DNA of 64,000 nucleotides. It comes from Achromobacter pestifer (GTDB lineage Bacteria > Pseudomonadota > Gammaproteobacteria > Burkholderiales > Burkholderiaceae_B). The notes beneath the pieces are model-generated. The model was not told the origin of the DNA and made no database searches. It worked only from the letters and a program-made list of their open reading frames with translations. Positions 29,289-53,978 of this stretch are shown piece after piece (position 1 is the first letter of the stretch; each line of letters starts with the position of its first letter). The position numbers and the translations under genes are program-made. The stretch spans positions 496,001-560,000 of the forward strand of contig NZ_CP053985.1 of the NCBI RefSeq assembly GCF_013267355.1, given 5' to 3'.

Positions 29289-29373
29289 GCCCAGGTGGCG
29301 GAATTGGTAGACGCGCACGGTTCAGGTCCGTGTGCCGCAAGGTGTGGAGGTTCGAGTCCTCTCCTGGGCACCA
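29289..29373 (+). tRNA. tRNA-Leu(CAG), copy 1
   Basis: 85 bases with encoded CCA. Acceptor GCCCAGG/CCTGGGC, class-II long variable arm, anticodon loop TTCAGGT (CAG, reads CTG). Identical over its whole length to the copy at 30257-30341. Confidence 0.97.
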
Positions 29374-30256: not shown

Positions 30257-30341
30257 GCCCAGGTGGCGGAATTGGTAGACGCGCACGGTTCAGGTCCGTG
30301 TGCCGCAAGGTGTGGAGGTTCGAGTCCTCTCCTGGGCACCA
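30257..30341 (+). tRNA. tRNA-Leu(CAG), copy 2
   Basis: 85 bases, identical to the copy 968 bases upstream, with encoded CCA and anticodon CAG. It has its own promoter and terminator, so the two copies are independent transcripts, not one array. Confidence 0.97.
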
Positions 30342-50788: not shown

Positions 50789-51070
50789 ATGAATACTCGT
50801 TTCACTACCTCGGACCTGATCCGACGCCCGGCACACACCAAGCTGGACAACATGCCGATCCACGTCGGCGACATCGTTTACCTGAAGCCCGCGAACGGCC
50901 CGGAAATCCGCGCCACGGTCATCTACAACGCGCCCATCGACGGCACGACGACCTACACGACCGAAGTCGTGCCCTGCGGCGCGCCTGCGCAAGAGGCTCC
51001 TGGCCAGCGCATCCGCTTCCGCCACGAGCACGTGCATCGCATCGAATCAGTGCGCCGCACCACTCACTGA
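50789..51070 (+). CDS. 93-aa hypothetical protein
   Basis: MNTRFTTSDLIRRPAHTKLDNMPIHVGDIVYLKPANGPEIRATVIYNAPIDGTTTYTTEVVPCG..., soluble and beta-rich, with a short GDIVYL strand reminiscent of small barrel domains. AAGAGAA precedes the start. It is followed by a hairpin. No family recognised. Confidence 0.62.
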   Translation: MNTRFTTSDLIRRPAHTKLDNMPIHVGDIVYLKPANGPEIRATVIYNAPIDGTTTYTTEVVPCGAPAQEAPGQRIRFRHEHVHRIESVRRTTH

Positions 51071-51081
51071 AGCAGCGCCCC

Positions 51082-51105
51082 GCCCCGTTGCGCACGCAAC
51101 GGGGC
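51082..51105 (+). terminator. Hairpin after the 93-aa gene
   Basis: GCCCCGTTGCG / CGCAACGGGGC with a two-base centre, 11-bp stem. No T run, so termination is uncertain. Confidence 0.5.
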
Positions 51106-51154
51106 AATTCGTGCGTGATAAAGTCCCCGGCAATACAGCCCTGGCGATCCCACC

Positions 51155-51847
51155 ATGCAGAACAACCGTCTCGCGGTCCATATCTGGGACCTTCCCACCC
51201 GCCTATTCCACTGGGCGCTCGTCGCCTGCATCGTCGGTGCATTCGTCAGCGTCAAACTGGGCGGCCTGTACATGGATTGGCATGTGCGCTTCGGCTGCAC
51301 GGCGCTGGGCCTGATCCTGTTCCGCTTGCTGTGGGGATTCTTCGGCCCGCGCTACGCCCGCTTTTCGCAGTTCGTGCGCGGCCCTGCGGCGGTGGCCCGC
51401 TACCTGAAGGGCGCCGCCGCGCCTGCCGGCCATAATCCGCTGGGCGCGCTATCGGTGCTGGCGCTGCTGCTGGTCATCGGCTTCCAGGCGGTCAGCGGCC
51501 TGTTCACCACCGACGACATCATGACGCAGGGCCCGCTGTTCGGCCACGTCAGCGAAACCGTTTCCGCCGCCATGACCTCCTGGCACAAGCTCAATGAGTG
51601 GGTCATCCTGGCACTGGTCGCGCTGCATCTGGCCGCGGTGTTCTGGTACGCGCTGGTGCGCCGCAAGCGCATGGTGCGCGCGATCATCACGGGCAAGGTC
51701 GACGCCAAGGACGTGCCCGCCGGCACGCCGCCGACGCAGGACGGTTTCGCCGTCTGGCTGCGCGCCCTGTTGCTGGGCGCCTGTGTCACGGGCCTGGTGC
51801 TGTGGATCCGGTCGCTGGAAGTGGCGGCCGACATGTCTTTTTCCTGA
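51155..51847 (+). CDS. Cytochrome b561-type membrane protein (b-type cytochrome)
   Basis: 230 aa, four or more membrane helices with haem-ligand histidines: VHIWDLPTRLFHWALVACIVGAFV, YMDWHVRFGCTALGLILFRLLWGFFG, MTSWHKLNEWVILALVALHLAAVFWYALV. The GHNPLGALSVLALLLVIGFQAVSGLF region is typical of prokaryotic cytochrome b/b6-domain proteins that pair with a periplasmic c-type cytochrome. A cytochrome c' gene lies 2.3 kb away on the opposite strand; they may have been neighbours before an insertion (see findings). ATG 51155 has no obvious ribosome site. Confidence 0.9.
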   Translation: MQNNRLAVHIWDLPTRLFHWALVACIVGAFVSVKLGGLYMDWHVRFGCTALGLILFRLLWGFFGPRYARFSQFVRGPAAVARYLKGAAAPAGHNPLGALSVLALLLVIGFQAVSGLFTTDDIMTQGPLFGHVSETVSAAMTSWHKLNEWVILALVALHLAAVFWYALVRRKRMVRAIITGKVDAKDVPAGTPPTQDGFAVWLRALLLGACVTGLVLWIRSLEVAADMSFS

Positions 51848-51852
51848 CTCCC

Positions 51853-51882
51853 ATGAACACCGCCAAGCAAGCAGACGAGTAA
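51853..51882 (+). CDS. Nine-codon leader peptide (MNTAKQADE) of the CmlA-like exporter
   Basis: ATG AAC ACC GCC AAG CAA GCA GAC GAG TAA, beginning 5 bases after the cytochrome stop. There is no strong Shine-Dalgarno of its own, so translation may be coupled to the cytochrome gene. The stop is directly abutted by a 12-bp hairpin that overlaps alternative hairpins controlling the exporter. The mobile cmlA gene (Tn1696) is known to be induced by translational attenuation with a nine-codon leader. From memory that leader reads MSTSKNADK, to which this one aligns position by position. Probably the chloramphenicol-sensing stalling peptide of this gene. Confidence 0.6.
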   Translation: MNTAKQADE

Positions 51883-51987
51883 GCCGCAACAACCCGTTTT
51901 TTTTGGTTGTTGCGGCGTTCTCGACACGCCAGTCGCTACACGAGAGCGCCGCCTGATCCTTTTCCAAGGAGATGGCTTCGTGCGCTC
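51883..51987 (+). promoter_or_regulatory. Attenuator: three mutually exclusive hairpins masking the exporter start
   Basis: Hairpin A: GCCGCAACAACC (51883-51894) / GGTTGTTGCGGC (51905-51916), loop CGTTTTTTTT. Hairpin B: GCGGCGTTCTCG (51912-51923) / CGAGAGCGCCGC (51941-51952), 12 bp with one G-U pair. Hairpin C: GAGCGC (51944-51949) / GCGCTC (51982-51987), extended inward by GCC/GGC and TCCTT/AAGGA, enclosing the Shine-Dalgarno AAGGAG (51966-51971) and GTG start. A and B share 51912-51916; B and C share 51944-51952. A ribosome stalled on the leader would break A, let B form, and free the start. Confidence 0.65.
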
Positions 51988-53167
51988 AAATGATTTCTCC
52001 TGGCGGCACTCCCTTGCCGCCACACTCTTCCTCTTGTCACCGTTCGACCTGCTGGCCTCGCTGGGCATGGACATGTACCTGCCCGTGGTGCCTTCCATGG
52101 CCGATGCGCTAGGCGCCGACGCCGCGACGATCCAATGGACGTTGACGGCGTACCTGGTGCTGCTTGGAGCGGGCCAGCTCATCTTCGGCCCCTTGTCGGA
52201 CCGCCTGGGACGCCGCCCGGTCCTGCTGGCCGGCGGTCTCGCCTACATCGCTGCCTCATTCGGCCTCGCGGCCGCCTCCTCGCCTGAGGCGTTCCTCGGT
52301 CTGCGCATCCTGCAAGCCTGCGGCGCTTCGGCATGCCTCGTCGCCACCTTTGCCACCGTGCGCGACGTTTACTCGGGCCGCGCAGAAAGCCACACCATCT
52401 ATGGCCTGCTCGGCACCATGCTGGCGATGGTTCCGGCAGTGGGTCCGCTACTCGGCGCGCTGGTCAGCGCCTGGCTGGGATGGCGCGCCATCTTCGGCGT
52501 GCTGGGAATGGCGATGACAGGAGCCGTCATAGCCGCCTGGCTGCTATGGCCAGAGACCAAGCGGCCTGCGGCAACGGTGCCGCAATGGTCGCAGTTCCTG
52601 CTCCCCCTGAAACGCCGGCATTTCTGGCTCTACACGCTTTGCTACAGCGCGGGAATGGGCAGCTTCTTCGTCTTTTTCTCAACCGCGCCCTGGCTGATGA
52701 TGGGCCGCCAAGGGTTGTCGCAGCTAGGCTTCAGCCTGCTATTTGCCACAGTGGCCATTGCGATGATGGCGGCGGCGCGGTTGATGGGGCGCTTGATTCC
52801 CCGCTGGGGAACCCTCAAAACCTTGCGCCTGGGAATGTGCGGCCTGATTGCCGGAGCCGCCATCCTCACGGTCTCCGAGCTGTTCATGCCGCATTCGGCG
52901 CTCGGTCTCATCGTCCCGATGTGGCTGGTCGGCGCCAGTATCGCTTCTGCGGTCTCCGTGGCGCCCAATGGCGCGCTCCAAGGCTTCGACCATATCGCCG
53001 GAACCGCCACGGCGGTTTACTTCTGCCTGGGCGGGTTGATACTGGGCGGTATTGGCACCCTAGCGATCACGCAGCTGCCCACCGGAACCGGCTGGCCCAT
53101 CATCGCCTATTGCCTGAGTCTCGCCATGGCAGTGCTTTGCCTGTCCTGCGCATGCAAACGCGATTGA
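51980..53167 (+). CDS. MFS multidrug/chloramphenicol exporter, CmlA/FloR type (Bcr/CflA family)
   Basis: 395 aa with twelve helices. GTG start at 51980 with AAGGAG 8 bases before it. Close in pattern to CmlA/FloR: FDLLASLGMDMYLPVVPSMADAL, TAYLVLLGAGQLIFGPLSDRLGRRPVLLAG, RILQACGASACLVATFATVRDVYSGR, GMGSFFVFFSTAPWLMMGRQG and the late VSVAPNGALQGFDHIAGTATAVYFC. These proteins expel chloramphenicol (FloR also florfenicol) by proton antiport. Substrate here is inferred from similarity. An attenuator-like leader precedes it. Ends 60 bases before the converging methyltransferase gene. Confidence 0.9.
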   Translation: MRSNDFSWRHSLAATLFLLSPFDLLASLGMDMYLPVVPSMADALGADAATIQWTLTAYLVLLGAGQLIFGPLSDRLGRRPVLLAGGLAYIAASFGLAAASSPEAFLGLRILQACGASACLVATFATVRDVYSGRAESHTIYGLLGTMLAMVPAVGPLLGALVSAWLGWRAIFGVLGMAMTGAVIAAWLLWPETKRPAATVPQWSQFLLPLKRRHFWLYTLCYSAGMGSFFVFFSTAPWLMMGRQGLSQLGFSLLFATVAIAMMAAARLMGRLIPRWGTLKTLRLGMCGLIAGAAILTVSELFMPHSALGLIVPMWLVGASIASAVSVAPNGALQGFDHIAGTATAVYFCLGGLILGGIGTLAITQLPTGTGWPIIAYCLSLAMAVLCLSCACKRD

Positions 53168-53228
53168 CGCGACCCGGCAACGGCAGTCCGTGTGCGCGAC
53201 CTCGTTGCCCACACGGGCCACAGGTCGC

Positions 53229-53978
53229 TCAACGCCGAGCTTCGATCAAATGCCGCGTCGAATGGGCCACGAACGGTTCTCCCCGGCGCATCTTCCCATC
53301 CAGCGCCAGCAAGGCATCGCGGTATTTGCGCGCCGAGAAATCCGGCACCCACCACACGCATTTGCGCAGGATCCAGACCACGGCGCCCACGTCGTGGAAC
53401 ACCATCCGGCAACGGGCCGTGCGCAGGTCCGTCACGGCCAGTCCGGCAACCCCGGCGGCCGCCGCTTCATCCCGCGGATCGCGCAGGCGCCGCTCCTCCG
53501 GCAATGGCCCCAGGAAGTGCTCGATCAGCTCGAAGGCCGACGCCGGCCCCACGTGCTGCGCAAAGTAATGCCCACCCGGCGTGAGGACGCGACGGATCTC
53601 CGCCCATCCCGGACTCACGGGATGCCGGGACGTCACCAACTCGAACGAGGCGTCGGCGAACGGCAAGCCAACGCCGGACGCGGTCAGCACCAGTTGCACG
53701 CCGCGCGCGGCCAGGCGCTCATGCGCTTTCCTGGCATTGGGCGGCCAAGCTTCGGTCGCATGCATGACTGGCGGAAAGCCGGGGGCCTCGCCCAGCACCT
53801 CGCCGCCGCCCGTATCCAGGTCCAAAGCCGACTGCACGCTGGCCAGGCGCTGTGCGAGCAAGCTGGCATAGCCCCACGGCGGGCGTTCCTCGGAGGCCCG
53901 CCCAGCCAGCCAATCGAAGCCCCAGCCGCTGACATCGGCGGCCTCGGCCTCTACCACGAGATCATCAAAGGATTTCAT
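53229..53978 (-). CDS. Class I SAM-dependent methyltransferase
   Basis: 249 aa from ATG 53978 (GGGGAGATGAG upstream). SAM-binding features: SALDLDTGGGEVL (motif I), ATEAWPPNARKAHERLAARG (post I), LPFADASFELVTSRHPVS (motif II region), AEIRRVLTPGGHYFAQHVGP (motif III). The tail VVWILRKCVWWVPDFSARKYRDALLALDG is typical of the small group of methyltransferases annotated as such in beta-proteobacteria. Substrate unknown. Confidence 0.88.
   Translation of the reverse strand: MKSFDDLVVEAEAADVSGWGFDWLAGRASEERPPWGYASLLAQRLASVQSALDLDTGGGEVLGEAPGFPPVMHATEAWPPNARKAHERLAARGVQLVLTASGVGLPFADASFELVTSRHPVSPGWAEIRRVLTPGGHYFAQHVGPASAFELIEHFLGPLPEERRLRDPRDEAAAAGVAGLAVTDLRTARCRMVFHDVGAVVWILRKCVWWVPDFSARKYRDALLALDGKMRRGEPFVAHSTRHLIEARR

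What the first reader, a model, noticed from the sequence alone, without database searches (positions are those of the whole stretch)
51853..51987. Chloramphenicol-type translational attenuator in front of a chromosomal CmlA/FloR-like exporter
A nine-codon frame (MNTAKQADE) starts 5 bases after the cytochrome b stop and its own stop abuts a 12-bp hairpin (A, 51883-51916). Segments of A are reused in a second 12-bp hairpin (B, 51912-51952), whose right side is reused in a third (C, 51944-51987) that encloses the AAGGAG site and GTG start of the exporter. That A/B/C chain is the logic of a stalling-peptide attenuator: a ribosome stalled on the leader breaks A, B forms, C cannot, and the exporter is translated. 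Established knowledge: the integron gene cmlA is chloramphenicol-inducible through a nine-codon leader. From memory that leader reads MSTSKNADK, which aligns with this one without gaps. Seen directly: sequences and pairings. Inference: function and inducer. Weak point: the leader lacks a clear ribosome site and may rely on coupling to the cytochrome gene. If real, this is a candidate chromosomal relative or ancestor of the mobile attenuator.
Basis: partly seen in the sequence, partly recalled or inferred. Interest (0 to 1): 0.9.

Follow-up and report, generated by a model that had tools for sequence, protein, structure and literature searches.

The report
Chloramphenicol-sensing switch before drug exporter
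A nine-codon leader and three overlapping RNA hairpins in front of an Achromobacter drug-exporter gene look like a built-in chloramphenicol sensor of the kind known from mobile cmlA resistance genes, and the same arrangement stands before nearly all related exporter genes that were examined.

Summary
The cmlA leader, read here from a plasmid, is MSTSKNADK; the 140-base region is 79.9% identical to that of plasmid cmlA. The exporter passes the CmlA/FloR cut-off. Of 100 fetched family loci, 98 have a short leader whose stop abuts (one: 3 bases from) stem A; one more has lost that stop, one is truncated. Of 50 distinct leader peptides 46 have Ala/Ser/Thr third from the stop, mostly within K-x-A-D, the published chloramphenicol arrest context. 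Modelling a ribosome at codon 8 lowers the cost of opening the exporter start from 16.2 to 7.5 kcal/mol. Best reading: a chromosomal cmlA-type translational attenuator, a cousin rather than the ancestor of mobile cmlA. Local twist: in the three Achromobacter with this exporter the leader has no recognisable promoter or ribosome site and starts 5 bases after the cytochrome b stop, so it probably relies on reinitiation. Induction is untested. A new member of a known kind, with a possible coupling variant.

The parts
51155..51847 (+). cytochrome b-type gene; its TGA (51845-51847) lies 5 bases before the leader start, so it probably supplies transcription and reinitiating ribosomes (inference)
51853..51882 (+). 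leader frame MNTAKQADE plus stop TAA
51865..51876 (+). predicted arrest motif, codons 5-8, Lys-Gln-Ala-Asp (predicted stall: Asp8 in P site, Glu9 in A site)
   Evidence: alignment with cmlA leader KNAD; published stall site PMC11190716; conservation
51883..51916 (+). stem A (arms 51883-51894 and 51905-51916), directly after the leader stop
51912..51952 (+). stem B (arms 51912-51923 and 51941-51952), alternative to A and C
51944..51987 (+). stem C with inner hairpin; encloses ribosome site and start codon of the exporter
51966..51971 (+). AAGGAG ribosome binding site of the exporter
51980..53167 (+). CmlA/FloR-family chloramphenicol exporter, GTG start, 395 aa

Best explanation
A translational attenuator of the cmlA type. 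Without drug, ribosomes finish the nine-codon leader and leave; stems A and C form and C hides the ribosome site and start of the exporter. When a ribosome with a bound phenicol reads K-Q-A-D, it stalls with Asp8 in the P site; its front edge covers about seven bases of the left arm of A, so A cannot form fully, its right arm pairs as stem B, B takes the left arm of C, and the exporter start opens. Shown: sequence, homology, conservation, pairing potential, the modelled switch. Inferred: the stall in this leader, induction, and phenicols as inducer. In Achromobacter the leader has no ribosome site and probably receives ribosomes that have just ended cytochrome b (inferred).
For: DNA homology to the plasmid cmlA attenuator, 79.9% over 99% of 140 bases, E 1e-25; leader aligns without gaps with MSTSKNADK. 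Exporter 549.6 bits to NF033134, cut-off 450. Of 100 fetched family loci (duplicates included, 73 distinct control regions with the window) 98 have a leader with its stop at stem A (L093: 3 bases before it); L114 has lost the stop and L084 is truncated. Draws not chosen by leader: all 13 of 398 phylum genomes with an over-cut-off exporter, G000 among them, have one, and all 16 of 268 in the family draw, G000 again among them. 50 distinct leader peptides: third from the end A/S/T 46 of 50, next D 33 of 50, Lys fifth from the end 31 of 50, 42 of 50 nine codons. In 50 distinct nine-codon leader DNAs codon 7 is A/S/T in 48, with synonymous codons in use; single-base changes along a minimum spanning tree are 59 silent to 60 not, neutral expectation 28.8 to 90.2. 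These are the published chloramphenicol preferences: Ala, less so Ser/Thr, at -1, Asp at 0, Lys at -3 (PMC11832420, passages); the cmlA leader stalls with Asp8/Lys9 in P/A (PMC11190716, passages). Opening cost of the exporter start falls from 16.2 to 7.5 kcal/mol when masked, reached by 0 of 20 shuffles; the fall exceeds the mean of own shuffles in 71 of 73 distinct loci, and in 57 of 73 at most 1 of 20 shuffles reaches it. The fall appears only if the ribosome edge passes the stop by about 2-4 bases or more, as for codon 7 or 8 in the P site (median 1.3 at 0, 4.5 at 2, 6.2 at 4, 7.0 at 7 bases; 68 loci). Stems A, B, C keep 97.7, 88.3 and 86.9% of pair cells over 25 CmlA-clade sequences, with 2, 4 and 6 pairs changed on both sides. 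FloR clade, 31 sequences: stems A and C, 8 of 16 consensus pairs changed on both sides; stem B 92.5% of cells paired.
Against: No expression, toeprint or induction data for this locus. Folded with more coding sequence (to 52010), masking does not free the start: SD unpaired 0.22 free and 0.25 masked, start 0.35 and 0.05; the switch is seen in opening cost with the RNA ended 13 bases into the gene. Covariation is modest: stem A is nearly invariant; for stem B a slid control equals or exceeds it on double changes in the CmlA clade (4 pairs, 6 cells against 5) and in the FloR clade. Ten of 73 loci have 4 or more of 20 shuffles reaching their switch, among them L094, L099 and L101, which are not plasmid copies, and the floR-type L035, L127, L129, L131. 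The leader has no ribosome site and no promoter match nearby. Leaders are related by descent, so counts are not independent; the named-genome scan kept the best 80 of 396 relatives.
Confidence: 0.87

Rival explanations
1. A relic: in Achromobacter the leader lost its promoter and ribosome site and is no longer translated, so the exporter is constantly low or off and the hairpins are leftovers.
For: Anti-SD pairing +0.7 kcal/mol and no -10-like match in the 80 bases before the leader, while 17 of 24 other CmlA-clade rows have one; no promoter match in 51000-53400.
Against: In all three Achromobacter loci the leader frame, K-Q-A-D, stem pairing and modelled switch survive although the exporters are down to 79% protein identity; the loop-closing C-G of stem A is U-A in A. 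insolitus, pairing kept; the leader starts 5 bases after the cytochrome stop in all three, and A. insolitus has a second in-frame ATG overlapping that stop.
Confidence: 0.1
2. Same switch, but the leader is started independently (weak initiation on an unseen transcript), not by ribosomes from cytochrome b.
For: Some family leaders have weak ribosome sites and no long frame ending within 200 bases upstream, e.g. L089; no RNA data.
Against: Constant 5-base spacing to the cytochrome stop in 3 of 3, and none of the clade's promoter motif.
Confidence: 0.3
3. Transcription attenuation: stem A or C is a terminator relieved by a stalled ribosome.
For: Leader plus alternative hairpins also fit that logic.
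Against: No T-run follows A or C; the terminator scan lists neither; stem C holds the ribosome site in both clades.
Confidence: 0.04
4. The natural inducer is another peptidyl-transferase drug or several, not chloramphenicol alone.
For: PMC11832420 (passages) names linezolid as a similar context-dependent drug; leaders of the family vary at codons 2-6.
Against: The exporter's NCBIfam models are named for chloramphenicol efflux; K-x-A-D matches the published chloramphenicol optimum.
Confidence: 0.15

Closest known systems
cmlA translational attenuator (integron cassette of Tn1696; Stokes and Hall 1991, not read, seen as cited in PMC8876359 and PMC5890775)
   Same: nine-codon K-x-A-D leader, stop abutting stem A, stem chain, AAGGAG, GTG start, CmlA-type exporter; DNA 79.9% identical
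   Different: chromosomal, without the TACGAT motif or ribosome site before the leader; sits behind cytochrome b
floR attenuator (PMC5890775; PMC8256890; passages)
   Same: nine-codon leader MGNSKSADK ending on the same stem A
   Different: exporter 48-50% identical; the passages describe one stem-loop and note that it does not overlap the floR ribosome site; stems B and C continue the chain in the FloR clade here, but a floR-type region identical in 12 loci, plasmid L034 among them, shows no modelled switch
cmlB1 of Bordetella bronchiseptica
   Same: best-scoring NCBIfam model, 686 bits
   Different: below its cut-off of 900; its upstream region was not obtained
cat and erm leader-peptide attenuators
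   Same: drug-stalled ribosome, alternative hairpins, hidden start
   Different: other leaders and genes, for erm other drugs (review passages)

Membership tests
cmlA-type translational attenuator | short leader with K-x-A-D arrest motif, nine codons | tested here: met
   MNTAKQADE against MSTSKNADK
cmlA-type translational attenuator | leader stop directly before stem A | tested here: met
   51880-51882 then 51883
cmlA-type translational attenuator | alternative stems with the exporter ribosome site in the last | tested here: met
   the long-context fold does not show exposure of the start
cmlA-type translational attenuator | downstream CmlA/FloR-family exporter | tested here: met
   NF033134 549.6 bits, cut-off 450
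cmlA-type translational attenuator | leader has its own ribosome site and promoter | tested here: not met
   taken as a variant of ribosome supply, since the sensing features are met; several other family leaders also have weak sites
cmlA-type translational attenuator | induction by sub-inhibitory chloramphenicol, stall at codon 8 | not testable with these tools
   needs bench work
CmlB1 exporter | score over NF012203 cut-off | tested here: not met
   686.2 against 900
mobile integron cassette | cassette recombination site and integron context | not tested
   attC sites were not searched; the gene lies on a 7.09 Mb contig behind cytochrome b with G+C 0.651, window 0.653

The most novel reading that the evidence does not exclude
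The attenuator is an ancestral, nearly universal part of the CmlA/FloR exporter family, older than the split of the two clades and native to environmental chromosomes of alpha-, beta- and gammaproteobacteria and Myxococcus; natural leader variation records the ribosome's chloramphenicol context rule. In Achromobacter the sensor has been rewired: promoter and ribosome site are gone and leader translation is fed by termination-reinitiation from a respiratory cytochrome b gene, so drug sensing is tied to that gene's translation.
Probability: 0.5. Interest if true: 0.68.

Novelty: new member of a known kind. Interest (0 to 1): 0.5.

Why it matters
It suggests that drug-sensing control was joined to this exporter family on chromosomes before integrons and plasmids took copies. 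It supplies 50 natural leader peptides for testing the chloramphenicol context rule, and it offers an answer to a point left open in two floR papers, how a stem that does not touch the ribosome site could act: through stems B and C.

Tried and rejected
Ancestor of mobile cmlA: rejected by the tree. The attenuator before other genes: model R1 over 369 genomes of the class (strict filters) gave matches in 9; the three best (G000, G515, G565) lie before the exporter; of the six weaker genomes (best E 2.8e-6 to 9.6e-4) I listed the frames around two (L178, a two-strand match at the end of a frame I take for a secretin; L182, unclear), not around the other four. First runs of the masked fold: one search timed out; one search misplaced the stem in five loci (L080, L085, L087, L091, L093), put right, where L095 and L128 still use a wrong downstream start. 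One search scored 100 of 100 loci with a loose rule; L084 was a chance hit there and was taken out. Rows dropped before counts: L001, L047-L049 (duplicates), L084, loci under 230 bits in tblastn, and also L095, L114, L117, L128, L137. Many loci are near-copies, hence 73 distinct sequences. I thought that the fixed leader length might be explained by PMC11190716, but there a minimal leader with only KNAD also stalls, so it is not. cmlB1 upstream region: not obtained. Literature searches; in the rows they listed I saw no paper on an Achromobacter attenuator or a family-wide leader survey, but subscription journals are mostly not held.

Full report
What is there. The window is bases 496001-560000 of a 7.09 Mb contig. 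Genomes G030 and G027, called same genus by the tool, have contigs of the same lengths as Achromobacter xylosoxidans B_1 and A. insolitus LMG 6003, so I take the host to be Achromobacter (inference). Behind a cytochrome b-type gene (51155-51847) lie a nine-codon frame, three hairpins that share arms, and a 395-residue exporter that passes the curated CmlA/FloR cut-off.

More than chance. The fold is 4.06 sd below shuffles. Frame-plus-abutting-stem is rare: two cases in the window, none in 324,782 control bases. The control region is homologous to that of plasmid cmlA over nearly its full length, whose leader reads MSTSKNADK.

Family evidence. In 98 of them a leader stop abuts stem A (in L093 it lies 3 bases before it); L114 has the leader without its stop, and L084 is an exporter fragment in Xenorhabdus beddingii without a leader. 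Draws that did not choose by leader agree: 16 of 16 carriers among 268 genomes of the family and 13 of 13 among 398 of the phylum; G000 is in both. Carriers include Achromobacter, Xenorhabdus, Acinetobacter, Thalassospira, Halomonas, Alcanivorax, many Rhizobiales and Myxococcus. The tree splits the 44 rows used into a CmlA and a FloR clade about 50% identical; both have the element, so it is most simply older than the split, though exchange happens: Comamonas testosteroni NFYY023 carries the cmlA promoter region and leader joined to a floR stem and gene.

Leader evidence. Fifty distinct leader peptides keep length (42 nine codons), a small residue third from the end (46 A/S/T; 48 if the two shifted leaders L093 and L114 are read in register, my hand correction; the other two have Val), Asp next (33) and Lys fifth from the end (31). 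Changes are silent about twice as often as expected under neutrality (59 of 119 against 28.8). That is the chloramphenicol arrest context in PMC11832420 and the stall site in PMC11190716. Departures exist: MVSLALR, MRPMVRTRT, MTPGPLTDR and others lack K or D.

Switch evidence. In the window the cost of opening the exporter start is 16.2 kcal/mol in free RNA and 7.5 with a ribosome modelled at codon 8. Over 68 loci the gain appears stepwise once the ribosome edge passes the stop by 2-4 bases, so the place of the K-x-A-D motif and the place of stem A fit each other. Pairing is conserved in A, B and C, with modest covariation. Against: with a longer 3' stretch the start codon pairs with coding sequence in the masked state; a floR-type region shared by 12 loci (L035 type, plasmid L034 among them), its kin L127, L129 and L131, and also L094 and L099 show almost no modelled switch.

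The local variant. Cytochrome b is present in 43 of 43 genomes of the genus; an over-cut-off exporter is present in 4 of those 43, one of them (G006) FloR-like and elsewhere. Of 30 cytochrome loci read (of 43), 3 have the leader and exporter directly behind it; in four others (G003, G031, G015, G061) the stop is followed 33-36 bases on by the gene that lies beyond the exporter in the window, an empty site; in the other 23 that gene is missing too. The exporter has about the base composition of its surroundings (G+C 0.651, third positions 0.797 against 0.887 in cytochrome b), so it is probably an old resident, lost repeatedly or passed on with its flank. Against A. insolitus the control region is 86.4% identical, the exporter 80.1%, cytochrome b 90.0%. 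In the three carriers the leader starts 5 bases after the cytochrome stop, without ribosome site or the TACGAT motif that most of the CmlA clade has (17 of 24 other CmlA-clade rows have a -10-like match, TACGAT in 16). Reinitiation from cytochrome b is the simplest supply.

What is known. cmlA control is classical; floR attenuators with nine-residue leaders were reported in PMC5890775 and PMC8256890 (passages), which noted that the stem lies away from the floR ribosome site; the second calls it unclear how it would act. So the window is a new member of a known kind; the family-wide picture and the coupling variant are the additions. All papers used were seen as passages only; Stokes and Hall 1991 and Gu et al. 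1994 were not read.

Noticed in passing
L127 2780-3060; also L189: Natural hybrid: cmlA promoter region and leader joined to floR stem and gene, junction inside the shared leader-end/stem A sequence.
   Followed up: partly
L114: Leader has lost its stop codon, so the frame reads on into stem A; relatives have leaders with a stop.
   Followed up: no
L084: Xenorhabdus beddingii exporter homologue matches only from residue 29 on and has no leader.
   Followed up: no
L035 (identical in 11 further loci, L034 among them), L127, L129, L131, L094, L099: FloR-clade copies with almost no modelled switch, unlike most relatives.
   Followed up: partly
L079, L081, L195-L198: Eleven-codon leaders (e.g. MSTLKKRKTDR, MNNGNGPQTVR) that still keep A or T third from the stop.
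   Followed up: no
window 29289-29370 and 30257-30338: Two tRNA genes with identical covariance scores about 1 kb apart, a possible duplication.
   Followed up: no
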